From positions 1 through 57,490 of IMG/VR virus record IMGVR_UViG_3300042988_000148: a DNA stretch of 57,490 nt. The stretch is one strand, 5' to 3'. Shown here in pieces: positions 3-35,510 of the stretch. The DNA comes from a virus. The notes under the pieces were generated by a model. That model had not been told where the DNA came from, searched no databases, and worked only from the letters and a program-made list of their open reading frames with translations. Position 1 is the first letter of the stretch. Every line of letters begins with the position of its first letter. The position numbers and the translations under genes were made by a program.

Positions 3-230
3 CAAGAACTGATAGCTGACATTGCTGTTGCTTTAAAGCAAGCAAGGGATAGTGAACTTACTGATGAAGAACGTCAGTGGGTTCGCCTTGCCATTGCCGC
101 AGAAGCTAGAAAAATCAAATTCCGTGACGCTGTTATTGAAAAAACGCTCACGGGTTTGACTTGGTCTGGCATTGTTGGTCTTGGTTACGTATTCCTAGAC
201 TTTTTCCGAAATCACGGATTAAAAGTATGA
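3..230 (+). CDS. Small membrane protein, 5'-truncated by window edge
   Basis: An open frame enters from the left edge (first full codon at 3) and ends at TGA 228-230, giving about 75 visible residues. The N-terminal part is charged and helical. It is followed by one hydrophobic segment (LTWSGIVGLGYVFLDFF) and a short basic tail, so it looks like a single-pass inner-membrane protein. Its stop overlaps the next start (ATGA), so the two are translationally coupled. Position upstream of secreted and lysis genes would fit an accessory holin-like or membrane protein, but no family is firmly recognised and the true start lies outside the window. Confidence 0.7.
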   Translation, partial: QELIADIAVALKQARDSELTDEERQWVRLAIAAEARKIKFRDAVIEKTLTGLTWSGIVGLGYVFLDFFRNHGLKV

Positions 231-751
231 ATCGGTTTGTAGCAACCTGTCTGATTGCAACATCATTCAGTGTTGCTGCACAACCTATTGAGACAATTTC
301 AAACAACACCAGTACGGTGACGACAAACGGTAGCATGACTACTGTTGTTAAGTCTCCACCTCCGTCTGCAATATCACCTCAGATCGGCGCTAATGCGTCA
401 TCTGACCTTTGTACGGTTGGAGTTGCTGGCGCTGTTCAAACTCAGATTTTGGGTATCTCTGCTGGTACAACATTCACTGAAGACAACTGTGTCCGTTTAA
501 AGAACGCTAAAACGCTTTACGACATGGGCATGAAAGTCGCGGCTGTCTCTGTGATGTGCCAAGACAAAAAAGTCTTTGATGCAATGATGCATGCAGGTAC
601 TCCCTGTCCTTATGACGGAATGATCGGTCCTGCTGCTAAAGCTGCTTGGCAAGCAAACCCTAAACAAGAGGAAGTGAAGAATGAAAAGCCAACTTCGATA
701 TTCAACACTGGCTACATTCTTGGCGTTTTGGGCCTCTTGTTGTTGTTCTGA
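227..751 (+). CDS. Secreted phage protein with signal peptide
   Basis: The product is 174 residues. The start at 227 is preferred over an in-frame upstream ATG at 161 because it overlaps the previous stop as ATGA and begins directly with a signal peptide (MNRFVATCLIATSFSVAAQ, cleavage after AxA). The mature part is Thr/Ser/Pro-rich, then carries a cysteine-containing region (LCTVGVAG, DNCVRL, VMCQDKK, GTPCPYDG) that suggests disulfides. A hydrophobic C-terminus (YILGVLGLLLLF) could anchor it. It is the first of a run of exported proteins. I recognise it as a type of conserved phage protein of unknown role; an envelope or lysis-related role is inference from context. Confidence 0.75.
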   Translation: MNRFVATCLIATSFSVAAQPIETISNNTSTVTTNGSMTTVVKSPPPSAISPQIGANASSDLCTVGVAGAVQTQILGISAGTTFTEDNCVRLKNAKTLYDMGMKVAAVSVMCQDKKVFDAMMHAGTPCPYDGMIGPAAKAAWQANPKQEEVKNEKPTSIFNTGYILGVLGLLLLF

Positions 752-1523
752 GCCTTACACCTATGGTGTCACGAAGAACGCTGCTGCTGCAGGTTTGACA
801 TGGGACATGAGCGTATTGCCTAAGGAGACAGGTTTAACGGTCAACGGTGTTGTTTATCAATACACAACTGTGAAGCGTCCAGAGGACAACATGCTTGTTC
901 ATGTTCGAAATCTAAATGCCAGAGGTGATGGTTACATCTTCAGAGAAACCGATGATTGGTCTAAGCTTCCGGGCAACACAATCAATAAAGTAGTCTCTGT
1001 TGATAATGTTCCTATTGGATATTGGGGCAAAGGGTCTATTGATGTTGAGGGACAAGGTAGAGTTGAGAAACCAAGTGTGGTCTACACCTATCGAGTAGAT
1101 CACTGTTTCAATGCAGAGATAACGCCGGGTTGTCCCGGATATAAACCAATTGTTCCAGAACAAAAGATTGAAACATATAACGCTCTTGATGATAGTGCTG
1201 TGAAGCAAGCTACCAAGAAAACAGAACAAGAATATAAGCAGGAAGTACAGAAACGAGAAGCTAAAGAGAAGGCCCTCTCACAAGCTGGTAGCGCAATTGA
1301 AGAAGCAGGTAAGTTATCACAAGAGTCATTGCTTCAGGCGATGAATAACATGACATCGTTTAGTAGTTATTATTCACTGGCAATAAAAGGTGGTGCTTAC
1401 AAAGACTCTCTAGTTCTTCTCGACACTAAACTTCCTGAAAATAGAACCGGTCTGCGAAACGGATTGGCTCAACAAGTTCTTCATACGAAGATGATTGATT
1501 TGCAATATGAAAGAAAACCATGA
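681..1523 (+). CDS. Secreted or lipoprotein-like protein, function unknown
   Basis: This 280-residue frame overlaps the preceding gene by 71 nt. Its start sits behind GAGGAAGTGAAG, a good ribosome site. The N-terminus is a signal peptide (LATFLAFWASCCCSEP) with a Cys cluster that could be a lipobox. The first half looks beta-rich, with paired cysteines near HCFNAEITPGCPG. The middle (roughly residues 170-215) is a charged Lys/Glu-rich coiled coil, and the end is mixed. It belongs to the run of exported proteins at the left end. The function is not recognised; the coiled coil suggests an elongated periplasmic protein. Confidence 0.75.
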   Translation: MKSQLRYSTLATFLAFWASCCCSEPYTYGVTKNAAAAGLTWDMSVLPKETGLTVNGVVYQYTTVKRPEDNMLVHVRNLNARGDGYIFRETDDWSKLPGNTINKVVSVDNVPIGYWGKGSIDVEGQGRVEKPSVVYTYRVDHCFNAEITPGCPGYKPIVPEQKIETYNALDDSAVKQATKKTEQEYKQEVQKREAKEKALSQAGSAIEEAGKLSQESLLQAMNNMTSFSSYYSLAIKGGAYKDSLVLLDTKLPENRTGLRNGLAQQVLHTKMIDLQYERKP

Positions 1524-2005
1524 AGTATTTATTTCTACTCCTGTTACCCTTCGCCGTATGTGCTGAAGAAGTTCCAATCATTGGGAATGTTCAGTCTAAA
1601 TGTGTCATTACAACAGACACCCCCGGCGTATATGGTAACCCCACTGCTGATAAATTAAGCACATCACCTGTTGATGGTGGTGTAATGCCTATTGTTCGCT
1701 ACGATGTCTCCATTGCTAATGCATACAAGGCCCGTATCAGTACCCCTACTAGCTTCTCTACCAGCCCTTCGTTGAACGATACGGTGACATGGACAGGTTC
1801 TACTTCTATCAGTTCTGTTTCCGATGCACAAATGTCTGGTTATGAAACAAACAAGATTGTGTATGACAATGCTACCGAATACAACCTAGCACTTGCTGGT
1901 TCGACATGGTTTAAATCAAGCTCTTCCGCCAAGTACGGTTTCAATAAAGCCTTTCCCGGTGGTACATATCGTGCTGTGGTGTACGCTGAATGTATCGCTC
2001 GTTAA
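1520..2005 (+). CDS. Secreted beta-rich protein, function unknown
   Basis: This 161-residue protein is coupled to the upstream gene by an ATGA overlap. A clear signal peptide (MKYLFLLLLPFAVCAEE) is followed by a Ser/Thr-rich, probably beta-sandwich mature part with two cysteines near its ends (SKCVITT and AECIAR) that could form a disulfide. The pattern resembles small pilin or adhesin-like beta proteins, but this is shape rather than demonstrated homology. It is the third consecutive exported protein in the cassette. Confidence 0.75.
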   Translation: MKYLFLLLLPFAVCAEEVPIIGNVQSKCVITTDTPGVYGNPTADKLSTSPVDGGVMPIVRYDVSIANAYKARISTPTSFSTSPSLNDTVTWTGSTSISSVSDAQMSGYETNKIVYDNATEYNLALAGSTWFKSSSSAKYGFNKAFPGGTYRAVVYAECIAR

Positions 2006-2361
2006 TATTGCTGCTGCTTGTGACCTGCGCACATGCACATGAAATGGTTCCTGCATATCCAAAGATGGAATCGTCCCATGTTGCTGGTGTTAGCAAAACT
2101 TCGGTTGAAGTATTCAATCGTAGAGAAGATGTGCAATATTATGAAGTTGGTGTATTTACAAAAGACTGGACACCTGTTCGGTTCGTAACCGCATACAACA
2201 TTATCAAGCTTAACTATCTAGGTCGAGTCAAGATTGATGTGTACATACGAGATGAGGATGTTGCTTCTGCCACATATATATGCTCTCAATCAAAAATTAG
2301 AAGTGATATGAACAATACAACGGCGGTGTCGTCGAAGATTTGTTCTAAGTTGATTAAATGA
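1990..2361 (+). CDS. Secreted protein, possible chaperone-like beta fold
   Basis: This 123-residue protein overlaps the previous gene by 16 nt. The signal peptide is MYRSLILLLLVTCAHAHE. The mature region (SKTSVEVFNRREDVQYYEVGVFT and following) alternates hydrophobic and polar residues like an Ig-like sandwich. The arrangement recalls the N-terminal domain of periplasmic pilus chaperones, but only by pattern, and the key residues of that family are not confirmed. Two cysteines (YICSQS, KICSKL) could pair. It sits next to the beta-rich secreted protein, so a chaperone and subunit pair is conceivable. Confidence 0.7.
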   Translation: MYRSLILLLLVTCAHAHEMVPAYPKMESSHVAGVSKTSVEVFNRREDVQYYEVGVFTKDWTPVRFVTAYNIIKLNYLGRVKIDVYIRDEDVASATYICSQSKIRSDMNNTTAVSSKICSKLIK

Positions 2362-2771
2362 AAAAGTCAGTACTGGCATTGTTGTTTGCTTGTGTAAATG
2401 TGTTTGCACAGAACAGTTCATTGAACTTGCAGATGCCCTACGGTTTTTCAAACTATCAGTCTGATAAGTTCAGAGCTGGCGAACTGGATTGCTCAAACGC
2501 TATTGGTGGTGGAAAGAATCTTGAGTTTGGTGTAACAAGTATTCTTAATAACACCAGTGGTATTTTGACTAGCTCCGATCCTAGTGTTCCGAAATCAAAA
2601 GATGTTGGTGTGTATGCGCGTATCACAATTCCAATTGATGAAGTTCCTGAGCGTATCAACTGCAATTCTCTTTATCAACTTGAGCTGAAAAAGAAACGTG
2701 TTGAGATTGAGAAGCTTGAGACAGAGCTTGATAACCTACGCAAGCTAAAGAACGGAAAGTTTGAAAACTAA
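2358..2771 (+). CDS. Secreted protein with C-terminal coiled coil
   Basis: The product is 137 residues and starts with an ATGA overlap. It has a signal peptide (MKKSVLALLFACVNVFAQ), a central Ser/Gly/Asn-rich region with one Cys pair (LDCSNA, INCNSL), and a C-terminal heptad-like helix (YQLELKKKRVEIEKLETELD). The coiled coil suggests oligomerisation in the periplasm. It is the last exported member of the cassette before genes for cytoplasm-anchored membrane proteins. No family is recognised; a spanin-like role cannot be excluded, but the size and order are not diagnostic. Confidence 0.75.
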   Translation: MKKSVLALLFACVNVFAQNSSLNLQMPYGFSNYQSDKFRAGELDCSNAIGGGKNLEFGVTSILNNTSGILTSSDPSVPKSKDVGVYARITIPIDEVPERINCNSLYQLELKKKRVEIEKLETELDNLRKLKNGKFEN

Positions 2772-2772
2772 T

Positions 2773-3297
2773 ATGGCTGATCTTGGTGAAGAACTTAAGA
2801 AGGTTGAAGACCTTAAAAAGAAGGAGTTCACAGTCTTCGGATTGAAGATGACCCCTTTGACTATTGGTGCTTTATTCACATTGTTATCGACTGTCATCGG
2901 GACAATGTATGGTGGTTTTGTCCTGTATAAGAAGGTTGTCGCTGTAGCCAATCTTGACCTTGGTGAGTATCAACAGAAGATGGATCTGATGGATGCCAAA
3001 GTTGAAGAGGCTCTGAAGTATGCCAAAGATATTAAAGATGGTATGCGCGGTGACATCATGCGTGTTGAGTCTGCTGCTGAACGAGCCAACAATAAAGTTG
3101 ATTCTGTGTCCATGAGAACTGAAGGCAAGGTAGATCGTTTGGAAGAAAAGATGCGTAAGCTATTAGACGATGCCGATGCTAGATTTGAATCGCAACGAGA
3201 GAAGCTACGCAGCTCTCAGAAGTCTGATACCAAAGAACTAGAAGACCGCATTAATGCCAGAGTTCAAAAGGCTCTGGATAATCCATTGTCGAAGTGA
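2773..3297 (+). CDS. Membrane-anchored coiled-coil protein
   Basis: From ATG 2773 the protein has 174 residues. An in-frame TTG lies at 2761, but ATG 2773 falls just after the upstream stop and has a GGAAAG-type site. A short charged N-terminus precedes one or two hydrophobic stretches (LTIGALFTLLSTVIGTMYGG), followed by about 120 residues of charged helix with heptads (KVDRLEEKMRKLLDDADARF). It therefore looks like an inner-membrane protein with a long coiled-coil tail. Its place just before small TM genes and the holin suggests envelope remodelling or lysis. The family is unknown. Confidence 0.75.
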   Translation: MADLGEELKKVEDLKKKEFTVFGLKMTPLTIGALFTLLSTVIGTMYGGFVLYKKVVAVANLDLGEYQQKMDLMDAKVEEALKYAKDIKDGMRGDIMRVESAAERANNKVDSVSMRTEGKVDRLEEKMRKLLDDADARFESQREKLRSSQKSDTKELEDRINARVQKALDNPLSK

Positions 3298-3307
3298 AAG
3301 GTAAATA

Positions 3308-3493
3308 ATGTACGAATTTGAAACATGGTGGAAAAAACATTGGATTGATAAACCGCACTGGTTGCATAGACAATGCTTCGAAGAAGGTTATAACTGTGCT
3401 ATGGCGCAAACCAAGAAAGAGAATGTGCGAATAGCTATTGCCTCTGTTATTGCGCTTGTGGTCCTTGTTGGCCTATATTTCATTAAAGGATAA
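3308..3493 (+). CDS. Small single-TM protein
   Basis: This is a 61-residue protein with an aromatic and charged N-terminal half (YEFETWWKKHWIDKPHW) and a C-terminal transmembrane helix (IAIASVIALVVLVGLYFIKG). It starts 10 nt after the previous stop. The tail-anchored topology and place among lysis genes suggest an inner-membrane accessory protein. The function is not recognised. Confidence 0.7.
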   Translation: MYEFETWWKKHWIDKPHWLHRQCFEEGYNCAMAQTKKENVRIAIASVIALVVLVGLYFIKG

Positions 3494-3498
3494 TCGAT

Positions 3499-3795
3499 AT
3501 GACTAATATGCGAATGACACCAGAGGATATCGAAATTCGAGTTTGGGCATTTATTGTTGTATGCATTATGACAATGCTGTTTGTTATTGCCCTTGGTATT
3601 TTGTGGGCTGTTGCTTTTGAAACACAAACAATGGAACTCGCACCAATTGATGGTATCTTCCTTGAGATCTTGAAGGCTGTTGCTTACATGAGCATCGGTA
3701 CTCTTGGTGGTATTGCTGGTCGTAAAGTAGCAGCAAAGGCTGGTGCTGCTCTTGGTGAGGAAGACAAAGATGATTCCAATCCCAGCGCTGCTTGA
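3499..3795 (+). CDS. Two-TM membrane protein, holin-like
   Basis: The product has 98 residues and follows an AAAGGATAATCGAT ribosome site. Two hydrophobic segments are visible: residues about 14-40 (VWAFIVVCIMTMLFVIALGILWAV) and about 55-78 (FLEILKAVAYMSIGTLGGIAG). A charged, acidic C-tail follows. Its 3' end overlaps the 3-TM holin gene by 26 nt. Small size, TM content and adjacency to holin and lysin genes fit a second holin or antiholin, which is an inference. Confidence 0.65.
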   Translation: MTNMRMTPEDIEIRVWAFIVVCIMTMLFVIALGILWAVAFETQTMELAPIDGIFLEILKAVAYMSIGTLGGIAGRKVAAKAGAALGEEDKDDSNPSAA

Positions 3796-4195
3796 GGTTG
3801 GCGGTAAGTTGCTGGATCGGTTTATGCCAGATCCTGCAGCTGCTGCTAAGGCTAAGGCTGATCTAGAACAGATGGCTGCTCAGAACAAACTGGCAGAACT
3901 CAACGTCGATCTTGAAGCATACAAGACTGAACAGAACAATCTCACAGAGCGCCTTAAAGCCGACATGGCTAGTGACTCTTGGTTGTCCAAAAACATTCGA
4001 CCATTGACGTTGATCTTCATTCTCTTTGCCTATTTCACTTTTGCAATGATGTCTGCTTTTGATCTTGAGACACGTGGCAATTATGTTGAGCTTCTTGGTC
4101 AATGGGGCATGTTGATTATGTCGTTCTACTTTGGTGGACGAACTCTTGAAAAAATCATGGACATGAAAGGAAATAAAAATGAACCTGACAAATAA
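3770..4195 (+). CDS. Holin, 3-TM/GTA-type family
   Basis: The product is 141 residues. The start at 3770 is chosen because GAGGAAG lies at good spacing, whereas the upstream in-frame ATG at 3743 has none. The N-terminus (MIPIPALLEVGGKLLDRFMPDP) and the long amphipathic helix rich in Ala, Lys and Gln are typical of the holin family with three TM segments associated with gene transfer agent release. Hydrophobic segments at about residues 85-106 and 112-130 (LTLIFILFAYFTFAMM, WGMLIMSFYFGGR) follow. It would permeabilise the inner membrane to release the lysin encoded directly downstream, whose start it overlaps. Confidence 0.8.
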   Translation: MIPIPALLEVGGKLLDRFMPDPAAAAKAKADLEQMAAQNKLAELNVDLEAYKTEQNNLTERLKADMASDSWLSKNIRPLTLIFILFAYFTFAMMSAFDLETRGNYVELLGQWGMLIMSFYFGGRTLEKIMDMKGNKNEPDK

Positions 4196-4643
4196 CTTCT
4201 CACTGAGTGAATTGACTCACAGCGACACTGCTGTCAAAAAAGGATTGGACAACACTCCAACGCAAGAGATTATTGATAATCTGAAAGTGCTTTGTGAGAA
4301 AGTGTTGCAGCCTGTGCGTGAACATTACGGCAAGAGTGTTAAAGTTAATAGCGGCTATCGTGCTCCTGAAGTGAATGCATCGGTTGGTGGTAGCAAGACT
4401 AGCGATCACTGCAAAGGTCAAGCCGCTGACATTGAAATTGTTGGTATTGCCAACGGTGATCTTGCTAAATATATCAAAGATAGCTTACAATTCACACAAG
4501 TCATTTTGGAGTTTTATACTCCCGGTATTCCCGACAGTGGTTGGGTACACGTGTCATACGACCCTAAAGATTTGAAATGTCAGGTGCTGACTGCTACGAA
4601 GAAAGACGGTAAGACTGTCTATCTTCCCGGTCTGGTGCTTTAA
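4179..4643 (+). CDS. Endolysin, M15-family peptidase
   Basis: This 154-residue protein matches the zinc D,D-/L,D-carboxypeptidase-like family (Peptidase_M15_3). The visible zinc set is H77 and D84 in SDHCKGQAADIE plus H124 in GWVHVSY, with E111 in LEFYTPG as the likely catalytic acid and R61 in SGYRAPEVN preceding. The length is usual for the single-domain phage enzymes. It cleaves peptide bonds in peptidoglycan. The lack of a signal peptide means release through the holin encoded immediately upstream. The start follows AAAGGAAATAAAA. Confidence 0.93.
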   Translation: MNLTNNFSLSELTHSDTAVKKGLDNTPTQEIIDNLKVLCEKVLQPVREHYGKSVKVNSGYRAPEVNASVGGSKTSDHCKGQAADIEIVGIANGDLAKYIKDSLQFTQVILEFYTPGIPDSGWVHVSYDPKDLKCQVLTATKKDGKTVYLPGLVL

Positions 4644-4985: not shown

Positions 4986-5380
4986 AATTTGAGGTTGTAT
5001 TAGATATCGATAGTGTTTGGGATGATGTTGTTGGTTTCATAGATAGCACCATTCCTTATGTTCATGGTGAATTCACAACACAAGATGTCAAAGACAAATT
5101 GTTGGATAACGAGTATAACCTAATCGTTATAAGTAATGATGATAATATAATTGGTGCTATTGTTTTTAGCACACATTTTGTTGCTAATAAAAATACTGCC
5201 TTCATTATCATCACTGCAGGCAGACACATAACAAACGATGATGCTTGGCAAAAGTTAAAAACTTTGTTTAGTAATCTTGGGTATGAATACATTGAAGCAG
5301 GAATGCGTGATAGCACCATGCGACTTTGGTCAAAGCTGGGCTTCAAAAAGAAATACAACATAGTTGGAGTTGATATATGA
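4982..5380 (+). CDS. GNAT-like acyltransferase domain protein
   Basis: This 132-residue protein has a GNAT-like order: N-terminal helix, the strands NLIVISNDDNIIGAIVF and NTAFIIITAGR, then a helix and the C-terminal LGYEYIEAGMRDSTMRLWSK followed by LGFKKKYNIVGVD. This end pattern is usual for phage GNAT proteins. The acetyl-CoA pyrophosphate loop (Q/RxxGxG/A) is not obvious, so activity is uncertain. It is coupled by ATGA overlaps on both sides and lies directly upstream of the virion genes. It might modify a virion or host protein. Confidence 0.65.
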   Translation: MKFEVVLDIDSVWDDVVGFIDSTIPYVHGEFTTQDVKDKLLDNEYNLIVISNDDNIIGAIVFSTHFVANKNTAFIIITAGRHITNDDAWQKLKTLFSNLGYEYIEAGMRDSTMRLWSKLGFKKKYNIVGVDI

Positions 5381-7269
5381 GAAATGATGTGCTGTTGTCG
5401 CTCGGTATTCCTGAACTGGATACACGAGCTTTTTCGCATGATGGCGATAGGAAGATCAAACTATACGGTGGCGGCACCACCTATGTTGATCGACCAACCG
5501 GTATCACACAGGAACAGCTTGATGCTGCTAATAAAAAAGCTGCAGATGCTGAAGCTAAAGCCGCCGCTGATGCCGCTGCTGCTGCCGAAAAAGCACAAAA
5601 AGAGCAAGCTGCTGCCGTAGCCAAAGCCGCTGCTGATGCCACCAATGCTGAACGCTCTGCCAAGCCTCAGATGGATAACACAGGCACTTATTACGAAGCT
5701 GCAACAACCGACATGGCTCCCGGTATGCAGGCTACAGCACAGACAGCAGGACCAACTACAGCTGCTACAGCCGCACAGATTGATCAGACCGCTGGTGTTG
5801 CTGCTCCTAAAGCAATCACTGCCCCTACGATTACGGCAGCAACGGCAGCACCCGCTGTCACTAAAGCACTTGAGGGTGTCACGGCTGAGCAAGGTGCTGT
5901 ATCTCAACAAGCACAGGTCACTGCTGCTACACAGGCTCCTGAGACAACCGCTGTTGCTGGAGTTGAAGCAGCACAGGGTGAAGCTGCTACCGTTCAGGGT
6001 GCTCCTACTCGCACTGTTCAGGAAGGAGAACTTGTTTCGGGCTCTGCTGTTGATATGGCAAAGGTTGATACTGAGCTTGCCAAGACTCAAGCAGCACAGG
6101 GTGTTGTCACGGAAGAGATGACAACTCAAGGCCAGCTAAATAAGTTACTGACTGATTTTGATGCCGGTGCTCCTCCACCTTGGGCCGCTGCCTCGCTTCG
6201 TACTGCAACAGCACAACTTGCTGCCCGTGGTCTTGGTGCATCTAGCTTGGCTGGTCAAGCAATCATTCAGGCTACGCTTGAAGCTGCTACACCCATTGCT
6301 GCCGCTGATGCTAAAGTGTTTCAAGAGATGGGTTTTCAAAACCTATCAAACCGTCAGGCTGTCGCATTACAAGTTGGTCAACAACGCGCCCAGTTTTTGG
6401 GTCAACAATTTGATCAAGAGTTTCAGACAAAGGTGCTGAATGCCGCAAAGATTGCTGACATTGCAAACAAAAACTTCGATGCTCAGACAACCATTGCACT
6501 TGAGAATGCCCGTCTTGCTAACACAATGAACGTTGCCAACTTGTCTGCCAAGAACGCTGTTGTTCTTGAGAAGGCAGCTGCTATGTCTCGTCTTGAGACA
6601 CAGAACCTGAGCAATCGTCAACAAGCAGCTGTACAGAATGCGCAAGCTTTCTTGCAGATGGACATTAAGAACTTGGAAGCTCGTCAACAAACTAACTTGT
6701 TCAAAGCTCAAGAAATATCCGATGCCATTGTTAGTGATGCCGGTTTTGAAAATGCCGCACGCGCAACCAACGCAACCAATGCGATGGAAGCAGCTAAGAT
6801 TTCTGAAACACTAGCTCTCACTGCAAATCAGTTCAATGCAACCGAGCGCAATAAAATTAGTCTTGCTAACATGAATGCTGCCAATGAGTTGGCTAAGTTC
6901 AATGCGCAAGAAGCCAATGATCGTGCAGAGTTTAACTCTCGCCTCTCTTCTGAAATCAATGTGGCTAATGCTAAAATCTTGGCAGACATTTCGACAGCTA
7001 ATACTGCCGCTATCAATGCTGCATATGCTGTCAATGCTAAGAATGCCACCGAGTTGTCGGCAGCTAAATACGCACAGCAATCTCAAACCTACCGTGACTT
7101 GCTTGAGTATTCTTGGAAGTCTGGTGAGAGTGAAAAAGATCGAGTGACAAACATTGCTGTTGCATCCATTACAAAGAGCGCTGCCGTTGCTGCTGCTGAG
7201 ACTACAGCAAATGCCGCATCCAACGCTGCATGGGGTAAGCTTGCATATGAAATTATCAAGGACTGGTAA
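5377..7269 (+). CDS. Ala-rich helical virion protein (internal virion-like)
   Basis: The product has 630 residues. After a short head (HDGDRKIKLYGGGTTYVDRP), residues about 45-95 are an Ala/Lys coiled coil, and about 100-230 are Ala/Thr/Gln-rich low complexity. The remaining C-terminal region is long helix with imperfect repeats around NLSNRQ, NLEARQ and similar units. No enzyme motif is visible. The helical length and position before two more large proteins fit an ejection or internal virion protein or an elongated tail component. The function is inferred from context; coding is certain from length, codon use and coupling (ATGA). Confidence 0.8.
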   Translation: MRNDVLLSLGIPELDTRAFSHDGDRKIKLYGGGTTYVDRPTGITQEQLDAANKKAADAEAKAAADAAAAAEKAQKEQAAAVAKAAADATNAERSAKPQMDNTGTYYEAATTDMAPGMQATAQTAGPTTAATAAQIDQTAGVAAPKAITAPTITAATAAPAVTKALEGVTAEQGAVSQQAQVTAATQAPETTAVAGVEAAQGEAATVQGAPTRTVQEGELVSGSAVDMAKVDTELAKTQAAQGVVTEEMTTQGQLNKLLTDFDAGAPPPWAAASLRTATAQLAARGLGASSLAGQAIIQATLEAATPIAAADAKVFQEMGFQNLSNRQAVALQVGQQRAQFLGQQFDQEFQTKVLNAAKIADIANKNFDAQTTIALENARLANTMNVANLSAKNAVVLEKAAAMSRLETQNLSNRQQAAVQNAQAFLQMDIKNLEARQQTNLFKAQEISDAIVSDAGFENAARATNATNAMEAAKISETLALTANQFNATERNKISLANMNAANELAKFNAQEANDRAEFNSRLSSEINVANAKILADISTANTAAINAAYAVNAKNATELSAAKYAQQSQTYRDLLEYSWKSGESEKDRVTNIAVASITKSAAVAAAETTANAASNAAWGKLAYEIIKDW

Positions 7270-9314: not shown

Positions 9315-12300
9315 ATGGGAATGTTTGATGATCTGCTTCCGTCTTCGGGCGGAGGTAACACCTTTGACGATTTGATTCCTGCAAAGCAGCCACAACCTGT
9401 CGCTGCAAAGCCAGAAGAAGATCTCACAAAGCCTGCCTTCTTGACACCGAAGCAACCAGCTAAGGCTCTCAAGGAAGTGCAGACTGCTGCTGTTGAAGAG
9501 CGCAACAAACCAAAGTTTGATTATCAAGAACTCTACACCAATCCTGACTTGTTTAAGATTGTTCAAGACTATTCGAAAGCGTCAACTGGTGCTGTGTACA
9601 AAGAAGGTGAAGACAAAGAGAAGTTCACTGCCAACTTCATGACCAATCTTCGTGGTCAAGACTGGAACACATTCAGCAACATTGCATATCTGAATAAGCT
9701 GAAGAATGCTCCAATGGAAGACAAAGAGAAGTTGGCGCTTGGTCGTCGTCTCTTTGATCAGGTGAAGGATGCTACAGAGGCGGGTGGTCAACCCGGTGCT
9801 CGACCATTCTATGACATGGCATCGTCTGCTCTGACAGACTTGACCAACTATGTGGGTCTTGGCGTTGCAACGTTGGGTAAGAAAGCGGTCACTAAGGCAG
9901 CAACAACCACTGCTTTGCAACAAGCAGAAAAGAGCATTGCCGCTAAAGCGTTGACACCCACCACTGCCAAAGTTGTTGGTGCAACCACTGCTGTTGAGGG
10001 TACCATCGGTGCAGGTCAAAACGTTCTACAACAGAAGTCTCAACAAGAGGTGTCTAAAGCGCTTGGTGAAAAACCTTCCGATCTTGACTATACACAAGTT
10101 GGTGCCGCTGCTTTGTTGTCAGCTGTATTTGGTTTTGGTGAAGCTAAAGGTACTGCGGCAATGAAGCCTGCTCAGTCTGGTACTGAGAAGCTCAACGAAA
10201 TCTTGAAGAGTAAGGTGAAAGCGCCTGCCGATCCTAACGCACCACCCACTGCTGTTGAGCGTGTGCTGACAGATCCTGTTCAAGAGAACATGGACACTGT
10301 TGTTGAAGAGTTTATGAACATCCAAGGCGGTCGCATCTTGGACGACATCAATCCTGCTACACCGCTGACAGATGCGAAGGTGCAGAAGGACTTGTCTGGT
10401 CGCGCTGTTCGTGTTGCTCTGTATGTTATGGAACAAGACCCAACATTCCGTGTCAAGCCCGGACAGAAGACAAGCACCGCCATTGCTGAAGTGTTCTCCA
10501 ACTTGGACAAGGTTGATGATGTTGCCCTTGAGCAAGCCATTCGTAAAGAAGGTTTGACACCTGAAGAGTTTGCACAGGCTAACAAGCTGACAGTGACAGA
10601 AGCTGCTCAAGTGATGCAGCAATATTCTGCTGCCGCTAAAGCTATGTCGCGCCTGTCACAGATTGATCCTGCCTTCAAAGAACAAGCTGATCTGTTGTTC
10701 GGTAAACCTGACGAGTACACATCGGCGCTTGGTCGAGTTGGTCAGATGGTGTCCACTGTCGAGCGTGAGTCTAAGGCTTGGGTTGTTTCTGGTATTGGTA
10801 CCACCGTGCGTAACATCATCGGTACTGGTGTTGGCCTGACATACAACTCTGCTGCATCGCTGATTGAAGGTAGTCTCTACACTGTTGGTCGCACTGCCGC
10901 TGCTGCTGTCAATCCCGGTGGTCTTGGTATCAAAGACACTTTCAAGAAAGGTGTCAGCGATACAATGAAGGATGCGTTCGGTGTGTATGGACAATTGCTG
11001 CGGTCTGATTTGTCTGCTGCAACCACTGACACTTTGTTGCAACACAATCCTGCATTGCGTAACAACATCTTGAGTGCAACACAGGAAAATGCAACCAATG
11101 ACATTTCCAAAGTGGCTAAGCTGTTCAACAGTTTGAACGTTGCACAGGATGCTTTCTTCCGCCGCGCCATCTTCAACGCTTCTGTTGATAAGAACATGCG
11201 TAAGCTTGGCTTGGATATGTATGAGACTGTTGCTGAAGGCAAGACCATTCCGGCATCAATCTTGAAAGAAGCCACTGACGATACGCTGAAGGCTACGTTC
11301 TCATATACACCCAAGCAACAAAAGCACGGGATTAAATCGTTCGAAGCTGGTGCTGAAGGGTTAGGTAATTTGTTTGTTAAAGCTGCAGAGTTCCCCGGTG
11401 GTTCTTTGCTGGCAACCTTCCCTCGCTTCATGTCTAACGCCATCGCATTCCAATATCGCTACAGCGTCTTTGGTGGTGCATCTGGTGTGTCGGATGTGTT
11501 GGCTGGTTCGAAGAAGCTTGCTGCTGGTGATGAAACTGGTCGTGCTCTAGTCAACAAAGGTATGGAGAATTTCTCCAAAGGTGTTGTTGGTACAGCCGCT
11601 CTTGCTGCTGCATACGACTATCGATTGAACAACCAAGACACCGAGTGGTACAACTTCAAGACCGAAGACGGCACCACTGTCGATACTCGCGCAATCTTCC
11701 CTCTTGGTCCTACATTGGCGGTTGCCGACTTCATGGCAAAGCGTAAACAAGGACTTGAGCCAAAGACTGCAGAGATGGTGGAGTCCATTGTCGGCATGAA
11801 GATGCCTGCTGGTACACAAAACCAATTCCTTGATCAGGTGTTTGCCGCATTCTCGTCTGAGAAAGAAGCTGACAAAATGGAAATTGCTGTTGGTAAAGTG
11901 CTGGGTGATTTCACTGCACGTTTCTCTCAGCCGTTCCTGTTCAAGAGTGCCTACGAATTCTTTGACCTGTTCCGTGAAGAAGGAACAATCCAGCGCGACC
12001 CCAACGTAATTAAGGCTCAAGAGAGCGGTGATCGTTTCATTGAAGCCGCTGTCAATCGTGTGCAGTCTAAACTGCCGGTGGTGAAAGAACAACTACCTGC
12101 TGCTGTTCCTCGCCTGCGTGAAGGTCCAGTGTACAAAGAAGGTGAATTCTTCAACAGCTTGATTGGTGTTCGTGAAGCAACTGAGAAGTCTCCTGTTGAG
12201 CAAGAGATTACACGACTTGGCATTGACCCTTATCGTCTGTACGGTCCCTCTTCTGGTGATCGTGAATATGATCGTGCGTTTGTTGAAGCTGCTAACCCAA

Positions 12301-14489
12301 TGGTCATTAAGACTATTCAGCGTGTTATGGCAAACGAGCGTTATCAGGCTCTGCCAATTGCTGAACAAAAGGTAGCGTTGGCTAACACTGTTCGTGACAT
12401 CACATCTATTGCTCGTGACAAAACTGACGCTAAGTTTACTGCACAGGATCTGGACCGTGTCAAGAAGATGCGTTTCGATAAGTTGTCTGGTGAAGTGCGT
12501 AAGGTGATCAATGACCGCTACGCCAAAGACCATGATGGTGTCACTCTGGAACAAGCCAAAGACTATCGTGCCGTAGACAAGTACGAAGCTATGATGGGAA
12601 ATCTGCAGTTTGCTGCCGGTGGTTTGGTTCCTGCATTTGCCGGTGGTGGTCTTGCTGCTGCTAAAGCTGTTGGTAAAACAGCTATCAAAGCGGCTAGTGA
12701 ATCTGTGTTGGACACAGCAAAGCGCCTCGGTGGTGCAGCGGCAGATGTTGCCGATACTGAAATTGACTCCATCATCAATAAGAACTTAGGTGTTAAAGCA
12801 ACACCTGCACCGTCTCCAGTAATGGAGCAGATGACTAACGTGTTGTCTAAACCCAAAGCTGTTCCAAAACCTTTGCTGCCTGCAACGCCAGCAAAGGCAC
12901 CTGCGGCGCTTCCGACAGAAGAAGCAATACCTACCCTGACAACACAGGCGATAGAGGCTCCTGCGCCCTCAAAAGCCTTTGCCGATGAAGACTATGTCAA
13001 GGGTGAAGAGTTGATGAAGGAAAACTACGACGAGGCTTTCCTCAAGTCGTGGAAGATTGCTAATCCAGAAGATTATGAAAACACTTTGCATTCCTATACG
13101 GGTCAAGCTAAGGGTCTGAAGTATTCTGAGATGCCACCGGTTCCTTTTGCTAAGAAGATCGATGAGTCTGCCGAGTCTTTGGTGGATGAAGTTGTCTATG
13201 ACATTGACGGCAATCCAATTGTCATTGGTCAAAAACCTGCGCCTGTGAAGGAAGTGGTCGATGACTATTACGGTGTTGATGAAAAGTATTTGTCTGGTGA
13301 CATGAACGCTGTTGCTGGAAAGAACAACATTGCTCGTCGCAACGACACTATTTCTGCAATCAAAGAGAAACGCGAAGACACCTTCTTCAAGCTGCGCAAC
13401 AACACAAAGTTTGCTGACATTGATGATGATGTGTTGGGTGTGGTGTTGGGGGATTATCGTTACTCTCGTGGTGTCGAAATCAACGCCAAAGATTCTACGA
13501 TGCTCGACGATGTTGTGAAGATGGCTGGTCAGTATCAGAAACGCCTTGATGCTTTGCGCGAGAAATACAAGGATGTTCCGCCAGTGAAGTTGTTCCACGG
13601 ACAGAATGTTGAAGAAGACATCAACAAACTCAAACGAGAAGGCTTTAAAGACCCTTCGAAGCTTGACTACTTCCATTCTGAGATGATGGTGGGTGCCCCT
13701 TCGTTCACTAAGGATTTGAACCTTGGTTTCCGTGGTGGTCCTTTCGGCGGTACAAGCCCTGAGAAGTATGTTGTCACAGAGATTCCATATGCTGATTATG
13801 TGTTCAACAAAATCAACATGGCCCCTGAGAAGTATGACAACAAAGATCTGAACACAATCCTTCGTGCTGTGACTGGTGCGCCCGGTGTTGTTCGTCCTGT
13901 TGGTCTGCCACGCGCCGGGTTCTTGGAGACAGAAGACATGATGGTAGAGGCTGAGAAACTTCGTGTTAAAGGTAAAAGCGCAACATTGCGTGGTGCCGAA
14001 ACAGACATTTCTGAAGCTCTGCAACGTGGCGGTAAAGATGTCATTCGCAGTGAGGTGAAGAAGAACGAAGAGATTGTTTCAGAATACATGAAGCAGGCTC
14101 GTCAGTCTAGCGACCCTAAAGAGCGAATGAAGCTGGCGTACATGTCGTATGGTGGCATCAAGGATTTGATGAACAGCTACTTGGGCATGGGTAAAGTGAC
14201 ATCGACAAAGACAGGTCTTGGTCAACAGTATCAGGCGGCGATGAATCATCTTGCCGACTACACTGGTATTCAACGTCAGATGCGAGAAGTCGGTGATATT
14301 TTGTGGGATGGTGGAGCCAAACAGAAAGCACAGAATCTGTATGAACTCAGCGACAAGTTGAAGAAGTTTCAACAGTCGGAACCTGCAATCTCCACTGCCG
14401 CTGATGAAGCCAAACGAGTGAAGCCTCTTGATGAGGTGAGGAAGTTTGTGCCAAAGCTGGCGAAGGGTGGACTAGCAACTCGTCGGTAA
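9315..14489 (+). CDS. Giant polyvalent virion protein with ART-like C-terminal domain
   Basis: The product is 1724 residues. The N-terminus has two FDDL motifs (MGMFDDLLP, NTFDDLIP). The first half is helical. Around residues 485-535 lies SGIGTTVRNIIGTGVGLTYN followed by hydrophobic helices. Near residue 790 the segment WYNFKTEDGTTVDTRAIFP resembles regions of LPD38-type large polyvalent phage proteins. Glycine motifs follow near residue 1098 (AAGGLVPAFAGGG). Residues about 1420-1550 (KLFHGQN with H1428, APSFTKDLN, ETEDMMVEAE) look like a divergent ADP-ribosyltransferase fold. The protein ends in LAKGGLATRR. Size and position suggest an ejected internal virion protein acting in the host early after infection. 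Confidence 0.8.
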   Translation: MGMFDDLLPSSGGGNTFDDLIPAKQPQPVAAKPEEDLTKPAFLTPKQPAKALKEVQTAAVEERNKPKFDYQELYTNPDLFKIVQDYSKASTGAVYKEGEDKEKFTANFMTNLRGQDWNTFSNIAYLNKLKNAPMEDKEKLALGRRLFDQVKDATEAGGQPGARPFYDMASSALTDLTNYVGLGVATLGKKAVTKAATTTALQQAEKSIAAKALTPTTAKVVGATTAVEGTIGAGQNVLQQKSQQEVSKALGEKPSDLDYTQVGAAALLSAVFGFGEAKGTAAMKPAQSGTEKLNEILKSKVKAPADPNAPPTAVERVLTDPVQENMDTVVEEFMNIQGGRILDDINPATPLTDAKVQKDLSGRAVRVALYVMEQDPTFRVKPGQKTSTAIAEVFSNLDKVDDVALEQAIRKEGLTPEEFAQANKLTVTEAAQVMQQYSAAAKAMSRLSQIDPAFKEQADLLFGKPDEYTSALGRVGQMVSTVERESKAWVVSGIGTTVRNIIGTGVGLTYNSAASLIEGSLYTVGRTAAAAVNPGGLGIKDTFKKGVSDTMKDAFGVYGQLLRSDLSAATTDTLLQHNPALRNNILSATQENATNDISKVAKLFNSLNVAQDAFFRRAIFNASVDKNMRKLGLDMYETVAEGKTIPASILKEATDDTLKATFSYTPKQQKHGIKSFEAGAEGLGNLFVKAAEFPGGSLLATFPRFMSNAIAFQYRYSVFGGASGVSDVLAGSKKLAAGDETGRALVNKGMENFSKGVVGTAALAAAYDYRLNNQDTEWYNFKTEDGTTVDTRAIFPLGPTLAVADFMAKRKQGLEPKTAEMVESIVGMKMPAGTQNQFLDQVFAAFSSEKEADKMEIAVGKVLGDFTARFSQPFLFKSAYEFFDLFREEGTIQRDPNVIKAQESGDRFIEAAVNRVQSKLPVVKEQLPAAVPRLREGPVYKEGEFFNSLIGVREATEKSPVEQEITRLGIDPYRLYGPSSGDREYDRAFVEAANPMVIKTIQRVMANERYQALPIAEQKVALANTVRDITSIARDKTDAKFTAQDLDRVKKMRFDKLSGEVRKVINDRYAKDHDGVTLEQAKDYRAVDKYEAMMGNLQFAAGGLVPAFAGGGLAAAKAVGKTAIKAASESVLDTAKRLGGAAADVADTEIDSIINKNLGVKATPAPSPVMEQMTNVLSKPKAVPKPLLPATPAKAPAALPTEEAIPTLTTQAIEAPAPSKAFADEDYVKGEELMKENYDEAFLKSWKIANPEDYENTLHSYTGQAKGLKYSEMPPVPFAKKIDESAESLVDEVVYDIDGNPIVIGQKPAPVKEVVDDYYGVDEKYLSGDMNAVAGKNNIARRNDTISAIKEKREDTFFKLRNNTKFADIDDDVLGVVLGDYRYSRGVEINAKDSTMLDDVVKMAGQYQKRLDALREKYKDVPPVKLFHGQNVEEDINKLKREGFKDPSKLDYFHSEMMVGAPSFTKDLNLGFRGGPFGGTSPEKYVVTEIPYADYVFNKINMAPEKYDNKDLNTILRAVTGAPGVVRPVGLPRAGFLETEDMMVEAEKLRVKGKSATLRGAETDISEALQRGGKDVIRSEVKKNEEIVSEYMKQARQSSDPKERMKLAYMSYGGIKDLMNSYLGMGKVTSTKTGLGQQYQAAMNHLADYTGIQRQMREVGDILWDGGAKQKAQNLYELSDKLKKFQQSEPAISTAADEAKRVKPLDEVRKFVPKLAKGGLATRR

Positions 14490-21086: not shown

Positions 21087-21594
21087 TATGTTCTCCTACC
21101 TCAAAGGCCAGTAAGTATAGCAGGCAACAGATAGCGTGAGCAAGATGACTCTTACCAGTTTCACTATCGAGCTTTTCACCACCAGCATAGGCAGTGAAGT
21201 GTCTAAATCCCGCATCGATGTATCGTTGTTTTGCATTAGGAACCTTCTTCCAGTTATCAGGCGCATACTTCTTTGCGCCATAGGTCAACACATCCACCAC
21301 TTCTCGCAAAGCTTTGAAGGGTAGCAACGACCACTGTGGTTTGCCGCTATCGAACTTGATGCCAGTAGCACCAGCAATTACACCTGTGTCGATGCGCCGC
21401 TGTTCAACTCCCGTGAAAGCCACATCTCGCGGATCATATTGCAGACGAGCAGCCATGTTCTCACCGTGGTTGTCAATGTTCTTGAACACATCTCTCGACA
21501 CCCACTTACTATACTCAACACAGCTAACACAGACAGGATTTTCAAAACCATCTAGTGTCTTTCCAGCATTGAAGCAAGTGTTACATGTTTTCAT
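21079..21594 (-). CDS. dATP/dGTP diphosphohydrolase-domain protein
   Basis: The 171-residue protein has an N-terminal zinc-ribbon-like CxxC...CxxC (CNTCFNAG, VCVSC). The family core follows: GIKFDSGKPQWSLLPFKALR, YGAKKYAPDNWKKVP, AGFRHFTAYAGGEKLDSETG and SHLAHAICCLLYLL. This is the MazG-related dATP/dGTP diphosphohydrolase family that includes cyanophage S-2L MazZ. It would hydrolyse purine dNTPs and shape the nucleotide pool. The zinc ribbon is an extra element. It starts with ATGA coupling to the 111-residue gene. Confidence 0.85.
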   Translation of the reverse strand: MKTCNTCFNAGKTLDGFENPVCVSCVEYSKWVSRDVFKNIDNHGENMAARLQYDPRDVAFTGVEQRRIDTGVIAGATGIKFDSGKPQWSLLPFKALREVVDVLTYGAKKYAPDNWKKVPNAKQRYIDAGFRHFTAYAGGEKLDSETGKSHLAHAICCLLYLLAFEVGEHND

Positions 21595-28820: not shown

Positions 28821-29005
28821 GTTGCTGCCACTCCACCGGCTAAGAACAGTCCGAAGAGTGCTCCGATAGCTGCGGTTGTACCTCTATCAATAGCGTTCCA
28901 GTTACCGGGGTTGATGTCCCATTGAATGAATGAACCAAACAAATAGACAACAACGTTAGCACCAGCAAAAACAATCAATACGTTTCTGTCTTTCTTATGC
29001 ATCAC
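28817..29005 (-). CDS. Small two-TM protein
   Basis: The 62-residue protein has two hydrophobic helices (VLIVFAGANVVVYLFGSFI and TTAAIGALFGLFLAGGVAAT) separated by a polar Asn/Asp/Trp loop. An alternative ATG at 29002 gives 61 residues and the usual 4-nt overlap with the recombinase. It is a probable inner-membrane protein of unknown role. Confidence 0.7.
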   Translation of the reverse strand: MMHKKDRNVLIVFAGANVVVYLFGSFIQWDINPGNWNAIDRGTTAAIGALFGLFLAGGVAAT

Positions 29006-30084
29006 ATCATTCCTCTCATTTCTTGTGCAACTGTTGCACTCTTTAGTGTGTGTTTCATATATGGCACCAAGCTTTGTGGTGTGGCATGTCCTGTCAAAGA
29101 CATGATGTTGGGTACAGGTACACCAACAGATACCATCTCAGTCACTGCTGTCCTGCGTAGATCCATCAGCTGCAACTCTTCAGGAAGACCTGCTTGTTCC
29201 ATCAAAGCACGACCAGCCTTAGCCAAGCCCGTCAGTGTATACGGTTTCATCTTCTCAGGCAAGGGGAACATGTATTGTTGCCAACCAAGTTCGTCGTGTT
29301 GTTGCTTCAACATTTGCTGCAGGTCTTGCGGCAGTGGCACTGACACCCTAGCTCGTCGCTTGCTTTGCTCCAACTGCAGCACACCAGTGTTAATGTCGTA
29401 GCTGCTCCATGTCAGCATACGCATATCACCTAAGCGCTGTGCTGCACAATAGGCAGTGTAGATAATGAGTCCCAAGCTACGGGTTGCATAGTTGCTGAAC
29501 GCCACAGACATGAAAGCCTTGATGTGTTCACGCTCCCACACTACTCGTCTACTCTTCACAGCCTGTGTCTTCACCGCCTTGAACGGATTGAATGTAGTGA
29601 AGCCATTGCGAATGGCATAGCTTAGCATCAGCTTGTACACAGCAAGTGTGTGGTTGGCAAGGCTTACACTATGCGCAGCAAAGCCATCATACAAGCGCTG
29701 ACATATTGGTGCAGACAAGTCACACAGTCGTGTCTTCAATAGCGTTGCACCGGCTGTCTTACCAGCGAACCACCCTTTCACGTAGTAGGGGTAGTCGTAT
29801 TTGCTTTTGTCAGACAGCTTGTTATAGTCAAGGCTATTGATGTAGCTTTTATACAGGTCTTCGATTGTAGATTTCTCAGACAAGTTTTTGAGATAGCGAT
29901 GTTCTCTTCGCCACTCATCAAGCTTTTCATTCTCTGTGTTGCAAAAGTTGACGGCATCACACAGGTTAGGACCAAGTGTGACACGCTTAACAATGCCTGC
30001 TTCAATGGCATCGGCGGGTGGGTTGTATCGATAGGACACGACACCAGCCCTGTCAACAAGCTGCATGTATCGTGCAAGTTTCAT
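29002..30084 (-). CDS. Tyrosine recombinase/integrase
   Basis: The 360-residue protein has an N-terminal SAM-like core-binding region (about 75-170) and a catalytic domain: Arg217 in AAQRLGDMRML, Arg310 in LMDLRRTAVTEM (box II has Asp308 where His is usual), His333 in LTGHATPQ and Tyr342 in LVPYMKHT. It is full length. It would support integration or resolution of concatemers or dimers. No repressor or obvious attachment core is identified nearby, and it is embedded in a replication operon, so the lifestyle is uncertain. Confidence 0.9.
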   Translation of the reverse strand: MKLARYMQLVDRAGVVSYRYNPPADAIEAGIVKRVTLGPNLCDAVNFCNTENEKLDEWRREHRYLKNLSEKSTIEDLYKSYINSLDYNKLSDKSKYDYPYYVKGWFAGKTAGATLLKTRLCDLSAPICQRLYDGFAAHSVSLANHTLAVYKLMLSYAIRNGFTTFNPFKAVKTQAVKSRRVVWEREHIKAFMSVAFSNYATRSLGLIIYTAYCAAQRLGDMRMLTWSSYDINTGVLQLEQSKRRARVSVPLPQDLQQMLKQQHDELGWQQYMFPLPEKMKPYTLTGLAKAGRALMEQAGLPEELQLMDLRRTAVTEMVSVGVPVPNIMSLTGHATPQSLVPYMKHTLKSATVAQEMRGMM

Positions 30085-35308: not shown

Positions 35309-35510
35309 CTCTGATCTTGCACAAGGCATCAGCAATCTTGTAGCAGTAGCGACTCAGCGCCGCAGCATCCGATACTTCTGCACCACTGGACAACACACCC
35401 TTCATAAGTTCAAGGGCGAAGTCGTCTCGCAATTCACGTGGTGCCTTCTCAGCATAGGCAGGACGACCACGACTACGTGTTGTTTTCTCTGGAGTTGCTT
35501 CATCGTTCAT
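35301..35510 (-). CDS. Small Arg/Ala-rich protein
   Basis: The 69-residue protein has a basic head (EKTTRSRGRPAYAEKAPREL, with an AT-hook-like RGRP) and a helical tail (AAALSRYCYKIADALCKIRD). It might bind DNA. It overlaps the hydrolase stop by 11 nt and lies behind AAAGGAAAATCAA. The function is unknown. Confidence 0.7.
   Translation of the reverse strand: MNDEATPEKTTRSRGRPAYAEKAPRELRDDFALELMKGVLSSGAEVSDAAALSRYCYKIADALCKIRDE

What the first reader, a model, noticed from the sequence alone, without database searches (positions are those of the whole stretch)
227..3297. Cassette of exported and membrane-anchored proteins
Five consecutive, translationally coupled genes encode proteins with signal peptides, followed by a TM coiled-coil protein and small TM proteins. 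One exported protein is coiled-coil, one beta-rich with a likely disulfide, and one chaperone-like. This is a large investment in the periplasm or outer surface for a phage and does not match a known spanin set. It may build an envelope structure, block superinfection or assist release.
Basis: inference. Interest (0 to 1): 0.6.

Follow-up and report, generated by a model that had tools for sequence, protein, structure and literature searches.

The report
Conserved phage cassette of exported proteins
This phage carries a set of six genes for proteins apparently sent into the bacterial cell envelope, and the same set recurs in fixed order in many other uncultivated phages, so it is a real but unexplained unit that may help the virus break out of its host.

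Summary
Window 227-3297 encodes five predicted exported proteins (P1-P5) and a transmembrane coiled-coil protein (P6), just upstream of a GTA-type holin and an M15 endolysin.

It is a conserved unit. All six genes lie in the same order and strand in 99 fetched IMG/VR loci (some contigs counted twice). Of 57 P1-fetched loci with enough flank, 29 had all six, 28 only P1-P2-P6, none another subset; 43 of 43 P5-fetched ones had all six. P1-P2-P6 is the core; P3-P4-P5 is an all-or-none block whose presence changes once on the tree.

P4 is predicted to be a single PapD-like chaperone domain. No usher over cut-off and no Rz-family match turned up in 36 carrier records, and P1-P5 have no conserved lipobox. 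So it is neither a known spanin set nor a chaperone-usher system.

Best reading (0.38): a late, lipoprotein-free periplasmic complex that helps breach the outer envelope. Main rival (0.27): a surface or exclusion structure. Conservation is shown, the P4 fold is a confident prediction, function is inferred.

The parts
227..751 (+). P1: signal peptide, domain with four invariant Cys (C62, C88, C111, C127), C-terminal hydrophobic tail; phrog_20531 (unknown function)
681..1523 (+). P2: signal peptide, beta N-domain (about residues 23-143, jelly-roll-like by its matches), Cys pair C142/C151, charged helical part, conserved C-terminal helix
   Evidence: alignment of 34; AlphaFold pLDDT 81.7, pTM 0.51; fold matches not diagnostic, best Z 8.6
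1520..2005 (+). P3: signal peptide, beta-rich by inspection, invariant C28/C158; candidate client of P4
   Evidence: alignment of 30; phrog_25895, unknown; no PDB sequence match, no convincing Pfam match; hhalign with SCPU pilins negative; not folded
1990..2361 (+). P4: signal peptide, one PapD-like Ig domain, invariant C98/C118
   Evidence: AlphaFold pLDDT 87.8; 19 of the 22 Foldseek matches at E <= 0.001 are fimbrial chaperone or chaperone-pilin entries; VIA Z up to 10.8
2358..2771 (+). P5: signal peptide, Cys pair C45/C102, C-terminal coiled-coil-like helix
   Evidence: alignment of 32; phrog_37374, unknown; weak matches in 25 Vibrio phage records (best E 4e-3, limit 1)
2773..3297 (+). P6: single TM segment, long coiled-coil-like region, C-terminus LDNPLSK
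3308..3493 (+). small protein with one C-terminal TM segment; outside the conserved set (2 hits, the window and its own copy)
3499..3795 (+). small TM protein, phrog_25359 (unknown function); 7 hits in the loci
3770..4195 (+). holin, GTA_holin_3TM family
   Evidence: PF11351 37 bits, cut-off 24.8; phrog_3427 holin
4179..4643 (+). endolysin, Peptidase_M15_3, no hydrophobic N-terminus
   Evidence: PF08291 E 2.2e-22; phrog_894 endolysin; hydropathy

Best explanation
P1-P6 are late proteins that assemble one complex on the periplasmic side of the inner membrane, and the complex most likely helps breach the outer envelope after holin and endolysin act, the job that Rz/Rz1 spanins do elsewhere, but without a lipoprotein. 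Proposed working: P6 (N-terminal TM) and P1 (C-terminal tail) anchor it in the inner membrane; P2 bridges outward, its C-terminal helix towards P6 and its beta domain towards peptidoglycan or outer membrane; P3 with its PapD-like chaperone P4, and P5, are an add-on that stabilises or extends the bridge. Shown: conservation as a unit, order, co-inheritance. Predicted: export signals and the P4 fold. Inferred: complex formation, topology, bridging and the role in lysis.
For: Fixed order and strand, all-or-none P3-P4-P5; in loci without P3-P4-P5 the P2 and P6 reading frames adjoin or overlap (4 nt or less apart) in 20 of 31. In a P1+P2+P6 tree of 86 rows the 59 six-gene rows are one side of a branch (SH-aLRT 100; one change of label). 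Distances between the six proteins correlate, r 0.54-0.75, 0 of 200 permutations as high for each pair. In the window holin and endolysin follow. In 31 loci with 3.5 kb on both sides, 15 have a recognised endolysin downstream and 0 upstream (but see evidence against), of several unrelated types. In pelagiphage HTVC023P a P1 homologue, a large exported protein, a short gene and a P6-like protein run into an M15 endolysin. No Rz-family (PF03245) match in 36 carrier records. Kongari et al. [quoted passage not shown]
Against: No component has a conserved lipobox and no outer-membrane anchor is identified. 46 of 85 loci with 3 kb downstream show no recognised endolysin within 4 kb on either side. 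The endolysin profiles were seeded with genes picked downstream of P6, so the 15 against 0 comparison leans towards downstream. In HTVC202P, Baldr and S28-C10 the P1 gene and its followers lie next to the terminase instead. In most pelagiphages the P2-like and P6-like partners are assigned by position, layout and the NPL tail; the profiles did not find them there (of the named phages in the set the P2 profile rang only in HTVC115P). In pVco-14 P3-P4-P5 lie beside tail genes. Flanking charges of the P6 TM are ambiguous (K/R higher on the N side 53, on the C side 30, ties 67 of 150; net charge more positive on the N side 119, on the C side 25), so a cytoplasmic coiled coil is not excluded. Five aligned P1 relatives (HTVC202P, HTVC023P, HTVC033P, Baldr, S28-C10) lack the tail. 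The window has two lipoprotein-like genes far away, 32985-33785 and 35500-35955, so an unlinked o-spanin is not excluded. PF03245 covers only part of spanin diversity, and most records are fragments or of unknown completeness.
Confidence: 0.38

Rival explanations
1. The cassette builds a structure on or in the infected cell's envelope that blocks superinfection or masks receptors: a chaperone-assisted small fibre or cap (P3 with P4, P5) held by P2 and P6.
For: P4 has a PapD-like fold; P3 is a small disulfide-type protein encoded next to it; P2's beta domain matches lectins among other jelly-rolls; in pVco-14 P3-P4-P5 lie beside tail genes, away from any annotated lysis gene in the stretch shown.
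Against: No usher over the cut-off in 36 records; no match of P3 to pilins; in the window the set sits with holin and endolysin, late, where exclusion is of little use (inference).
Confidence: 0.27
2. The cassette controls lysis timing or the endolysin from the membrane or periplasm (antiholin-like or releasin-like), rather than breaking the outer membrane.
For: TM coiled-coil P6; members of TM families that look holin-like nearby in 70 of 85 loci (unproven as holins); one P6-like relative is annotated DUF2730 in its record, the family of the Mu releasin gp25 (PMC9239132, passages seen).
Against: Six genes with four soluble exported proteins are more than a timer needs (inference); the window's endolysin has no SAR-like N-terminus; DUF2730 was not listed for P6 nor among the 25 of 67 families shown for its alignment.
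Confidence: 0.13
3. The exported proteins end up on the virion, added in the periplasm or at release, for example as extra receptor-binding or protective proteins.
For: Jelly-roll-like domain in P2 and tail genes beside P3-P4-P5 in pVco-14.
Against: Tailed phages assemble in the cytoplasm; signal peptides on five proteins and membrane segments on P1 and P6 do not fit a virion part (general knowledge).
Confidence: 0.08

Closest known systems
Two-component spanins (lambda Rz/Rz1)
   Same: Late genes next to holin and endolysin in the window; P6 resembles an i-spanin in layout (TM plus coiled-coil-like region).
   Different: No o-spanin-type lipoprotein in the cassette, no Rz-family match, six proteins instead of two.
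Unimolecular spanin (T1 gp11)
   Same: P1 has an N-terminal export signal and a C-terminal hydrophobic tail.
   Different: P1 has no lipobox (0 of 156) and has a four-Cys domain.
Chaperone-usher chaperones (PapD, FimC, SafB, FaeE)
   Same: P4 is predicted to have the fold of their N-terminal domain and is encoded next to a small exported beta-rich protein.
   Different: One domain instead of two; no usher over the cut-off in 36 records; P3 shows no detectable pilin similarity.
Mu releasin gp25 (DUF2730)
   Same: N-terminal TM followed by a charged region; near the endolysin.
   Different: The Mu endolysin is a SAR endolysin, here it is an M15 peptidase without such a segment; similarity to DUF2730 not found for P6.
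Pelagiphage genes such as HTVC023P gp45, gp46 and gp48 (hypothetical proteins)
   Same: P1 homologue, then a large exported protein, then (after a short gene) a TM coiled-coil-like protein ending NPL, then an M15 endolysin.
   Different: No P3-P4-P5 seen there; gp46 is much longer, with an acidic, Glu-rich linker; gp46 and gp48 were not found by the P2 and P6 profiles and are matched by position, layout and tail.

Membership tests
Two-component spanin | i-spanin: N-terminal TM with periplasmic coiled coil | tested here: inconclusive
   P6 has the TM and coiled-coil-like region but flanking charges do not settle its topology
Two-component spanin | o-spanin: outer-membrane lipoprotein in or near the set | tested here: not met
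   Strict lipobox in P1 0 of 156, P2 2 of 118, P3 12 of 115, P4 0 of 122, P5 1 of 123. The six-frame scan of the window gave five rows in four places, none within 227-4643; two places look like real genes, both far away
Two-component spanin | Similarity to Rz (PF03245) | tested here: not met
   0 of 36 records at E up to 0.1; window 0 at E up to 10. Other spanin families were not searched
Unimolecular spanin | Lipobox plus C-terminal TM on one protein | tested here: not met
   P1: tail 134 of 156, lipobox 0 of 156
Chaperone-usher pathway | PapD-like chaperone domain 1 | tested here: met
   P4 model: Foldseek best E 1.1e-4, TMq 0.51-0.63 for ranks 1-12; VIA Z 10.8, 3.5-4.2 A, 101-109 aligned for the two top rows. 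A fold, not a tested activity
Chaperone-usher pathway | Second chaperone domain | tested here: not met
   P4 is 123 aa with its signal peptide; the listed chaperone rows align it to the first domain
Chaperone-usher pathway | Outer-membrane usher (PF00577) | tested here: not met
   0 of 36 records over the cut-off; one match below it (E 7.6e-4, 12.4 bits, two internal stops) in L019's record. Records may be fragments
Chaperone-usher pathway | Pilin subunit | tested here: inconclusive
   P3: no PDB sequence match and no convincing Pfam match; hhalign against 18 of 19 fetched SCPU matches, probability 0.49%; low diversity of the P3 alignment; P3 not folded
DUF2730 releasin | DUF2730 similarity | tested here: inconclusive
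   Not listed for P6 at E up to 1, nor among the 25 of 67 families shown for A2
DUF2730 releasin | Partner SAR endolysin | tested here: not met
   Window endolysin has no hydrophobic N-terminus
Rap1a/Tai immunity proteins (considered for P1) | Profile similarity | tested here: inconclusive
   hhalign against 14 of 23 fetched matches, probability 0.35%; P1 not folded

The most novel reading that the evidence does not exclude
A widespread, lipoprotein-free envelope-breaching machine of aquatic phages: P1-P2-P6 form an inner-membrane-anchored bridge that replaces spanins, and one lineage recruited a fimbria-type chaperone with its client (P4 with P3) and P5 to build a longer bridge or fibre in the dying cell. 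This would supply an unknown route out for part of the spanin-less phages.
Probability: 0.22. Interest if true: 0.85.

Novelty: new variant of a known kind. Interest (0 to 1): 0.64.

Why it matters
In a published survey 91 of 677 phages had no recognisable spanin, 20 of them on marine cyanobacteria, and the authors say that further experiments are needed to learn how such phages open the outer membrane (PMC6139136, section 15). A PapD-like chaperone domain inside a phage cassette without a detected usher would itself surprise specialists in pilus assembly. If it proves to be an exclusion system instead, it would still be a widespread envelope module that none of the rows listed by my literature searches describes.

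Tried and rejected
Circular genome: the ORF at 56863-57490 joins in frame to bases 3-229 across the record ends, and an early note called the record complete on that ground. The sister locus L096 shows a separate 81-aa small TM gene there, so the join is chance, circularity is not shown, and that note is withdrawn.

Embedded Rz1: the lipoprotein-like ORF at 21378-21551 (minus) lies in another frame of a dATP/dGTP pyrophosphohydrolase-like gene; rejected.

P2 as lipoprotein: the window P2 has WASC near its signal end, but homologues such as L063 and L175 have no Cys there (relaxed lipobox 11 of 118).

P3 as SCPU-type pilin and P1 as Rap1a/Tai-like: sequences fetched (19 and 23 matches); 18 and 14 of them, kept by a simple pattern for plausible ends, were compared by hhalign, both negative. 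The P3 alignment has little diversity (Neff 2.2), so this is weak.

P2 fold: matches (baseplate cup, plant virus capsids, BcsB, lectins, Ena fibres) are at Z 8.6 or lower, a level the tool calls common; no function is taken from them.

Sequence searches without result: Pfam and PDB for P1-P5 and the Vibrio P3- and P4-like proteins gave nothing convincing; tblastn of P2, P3 and P4 in phage records gave no match; a single-sequence P2 scan of viral contigs matched 6 stretches, none confirmed.

Literature: searches listed nothing that by title or start of abstract describes this cassette or a phage-encoded PapD-like chaperone. The lists were capped (for example 10 of 973 papers, 15 of 140), only open-licence PMC papers are held, and I read passages of PMC9239132 and passages plus section 15 of PMC6139136 only.

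Rows dropped: loci L001-L015 were left out of the counts. 23 of 80 P1-fetched and 37 of 80 P5-fetched loci were too short for the co-occurrence count. At least five contigs appear in both sets. The tree used 86 of 129 rows after removal of rows 90% or more identical; it needs one change of the six/three label, which may be a gain or a loss. The crude signal-peptide score (P1 126/155, P2 113/118, P3 115/115, P4 116/122, P5 122/123) also rings for P6 (94/154), so it is not specific. Only P4 and P2 were folded.
Full report
WHAT IS THERE. The window is a whole IMG/VR virus record of 57,490 bases. Terminase, head-tail adaptor/portal, capsid and tail genes and DNA polymerase, primase-helicase, ribonucleotide reductase and integrase genes mark a tailed phage, probably a podovirus (inference). 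Its host is not known to me. At 227-3297 six genes follow each other on the plus strand, with overlaps of 71, 4, 16 and 4 nt and then a 1-nt gap. P1-P5 begin with signal-peptide-like segments. P6 has one TM segment and a coiled-coil-like region. Two small TM proteins, a GTA_holin_3TM holin and a Peptidase_M15_3 endolysin follow. PHROGs knows P1, P3 and P5 only as families of unknown function and gives nothing convincing for P2, P4 and P6.

CONSERVATION. With P5, 178 of 201 were confirmed; 80 loci were kept. Iterated profile searches over all reading frames of 175 loci and the window found P1-P6 161, 151, 120, 123, 123 and 157 times, while five genes downstream of P6 in the window were found 2-8 times. 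Loci with all six genes always show them in the order P1-P2-P3-P4-P5-P6 on one strand: 101 strings, that is 99 fetched viral loci plus the window and its own copy L001, at least five contigs being fetched twice. Of P1-fetched loci with enough flank, 29 of 57 had all six and 28 of 57 had P1-P2-P6 only; no other subset was seen. Of P5-fetched loci with enough flank, 43 of 43 had all six. In loci without P3-P4-P5 the P2 and P6 frames are 4 nt or less apart or overlap in 20 of 31; others have a gap or other genes between. In a tree of P1+P2+P6 from 86 rows the 59 six-gene rows are one side of a branch (support 100), and the label needs one change against 23.2 on average for shuffled labels. The block was therefore gained or lost once in this set; I favour a gain, as the six-gene rows are nested under midpoint rooting, which is only a drawing aid. 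Pairwise distances of the six proteins correlate with r 0.54-0.75, 0 of 200 permutations as high for each pair; shared descent of whole contigs contributes to this. Tight overlap of neighbours is general only for P1-P2 (99 of 99; the other junctions are within 15 nt in 35-62 of 99).

SPREAD. Tblastn found P1 relatives in 14 phage records, among them pelagiphages HTVC023P, HTVC202P, HTVC115P, HTVC033P and Baldr, the Kyanoviridae phage Mosig, the Autographiviridae phage S28-C10, roseophages CRP-207 and CRP-810, and Achromobacter phages JWAlpha and JWDelta (regions). In several of these P1 is followed by a large exported protein and a TM coiled-coil-like protein. Eleven such P6-like sequences, the window's included and picked by position and tail, align poorly but all end NPL or NPM. 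The P6 profile found them in some named phages, the P2 profile only in HTVC115P, and neither rang in JWAlpha. In bacterial genome assemblies 13 of 54 pattern matches were confirmed, all under titles of bins, MAGs or uncultured isolates. Vibrio phages carry a distant P5 (25 records, best E 4e-3 at a limit of 1). In the two inspected, P3-like and P4-like genes precede it and a small overlapping lipoprotein-like gene follows; P1, P2 and P6 were not found in the stretches fetched. In pVco-14 annotated tail genes follow; in K450 the neighbours are mostly hypothetical. P3 and P4 there are assigned by position and weak alignment, not by a significant search.

STRUCTURES. P4 folded with mean pLDDT 87.8. 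Foldseek ranks 1-12 are all entries of fimbrial chaperones or chaperone-pilin complexes (FaeE, DraB, SafB, SfaE), E 1.1e-4 to 3.9e-4, and 19 of the 22 matches at E 0.001 or lower are such entries; the other three are a FixG-related protein, a superoxide dismutase subunit and a human PapD-like domain. VIA-align gives Z 9.4-10.8 for the chaperone rows shown, in FimC numbering aligning residues 16-123 to 1-115, that is domain 1. Exo-chitosanase rows (rmsd above 10) and MSP and ASH domains score almost as high, so the fold is PapD-like but its action as a chaperone is inferred. P2 folded with pLDDT 81.7 and pTM 0.51; residues 23-143 form a beta domain with best Z 8.6. Its matches are mixed jelly-rolls, so I claim no function from it. 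Invariant Cys sets in every exported protein fit an oxidising compartment.

WHAT IT IS NOT. No conserved lipobox in P1-P5. No Rz-family (PF03245) protein in 36 carrier records including the window. No usher over the cut-off in the same 36, one match below it. P3 did not match SCPU pilins and P1 did not match Rap1a by profile comparison. DUF2730 was not listed for P6. Absence in records that may be fragments is weak evidence, and spanin families other than PF03245 were not searched.

HOW IT MOST LIKELY WORKS. In 31 loci with 3.5 kb on both sides, a recognised endolysin lies downstream in 15 and upstream in 0. The endolysin profiles were seeded with genes picked downstream, so this leans towards the result. 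In the larger set 39 of 85 have one within 4 kb on either side and 46 do not; 70 of 85 have a member of a TM family that looks holin-like, nearly all unproven. The endolysins differ in kind (PF00959, PF07486, PF13539, a PF01471-bearing type and the window's PF08291), so where the cassette keeps company with lysis it does so with no single enzyme. In three named phages its P1 neighbourhood adjoins the terminase instead. A complex anchored by P6 and P1, bridging outward through P2, could do what Rz/Rz1 does. Kongari et al. [quoted passage not shown] passages). I rate this reading 0.38. The exclusion or surface-structure reading (0.27) gains from the chaperone fold and from pVco-14. Lysis control (0.13) and virion decoration (0.08) are less likely.

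NOVELTY. Homologues of single genes exist in GenBank as hypothetical proteins, so the parts are not unseen. What I found no listing of, within the capped searches, is the cassette as a unit, its two-module build and the PapD-like member. I file it as a new variant of a known kind (late phage envelope and lysis-associated modules) because the function is unproven. If it breaches the envelope without a lipoprotein it would deserve a higher rank.

Noticed in passing
32985-33785 (minus): Lipoprotein-signal protein of phrog_200 ('lipoprotein'); the SPFH/prohibitin-like look is recalled, not from a call..
   Followed up: no
35500-35955 (minus): Lipoprotein-signal protein matching endolysin families phrog_938 and phrog_15649: a second cell-wall hydrolase candidate, about 31 kb from the holin and M15 endolysin..
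   Followed up: no
29005-30084 (minus): Integrase (phrog_1) in a phage with its own DNA polymerase and primase-helicase genes..
   Followed up: no
9315-14489: 1724-aa ORF, and 448-, 167- and 630-aa ORFs before it, without Pfam or PHROG match at E up to 0.01..
   Followed up: no
L003:3292-3873 and L011:6213-6635: CRP-207 gp73 and CRP-810 gp51 are annotated as lysozyme but match the P6 profile and end NPL: probable misannotation..
   Followed up: partly
3-229: C-terminal part of an 81-aa small TM protein, cut by the record start; whole in L096 at 2894-3136..
   Followed up: yes
L009:5242-5466 and L010 about 5300-5475: Vibrio phage P5 homologues are followed by an overlapping small lipoprotein-like gene; the pVco-14 one ends LDNPI, like the P6 tail, the K450 one does not..
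   Followed up: partly
L062:8812-9426 and 9441-9911: Two tandem P6-type genes in one locus..
   Followed up: no
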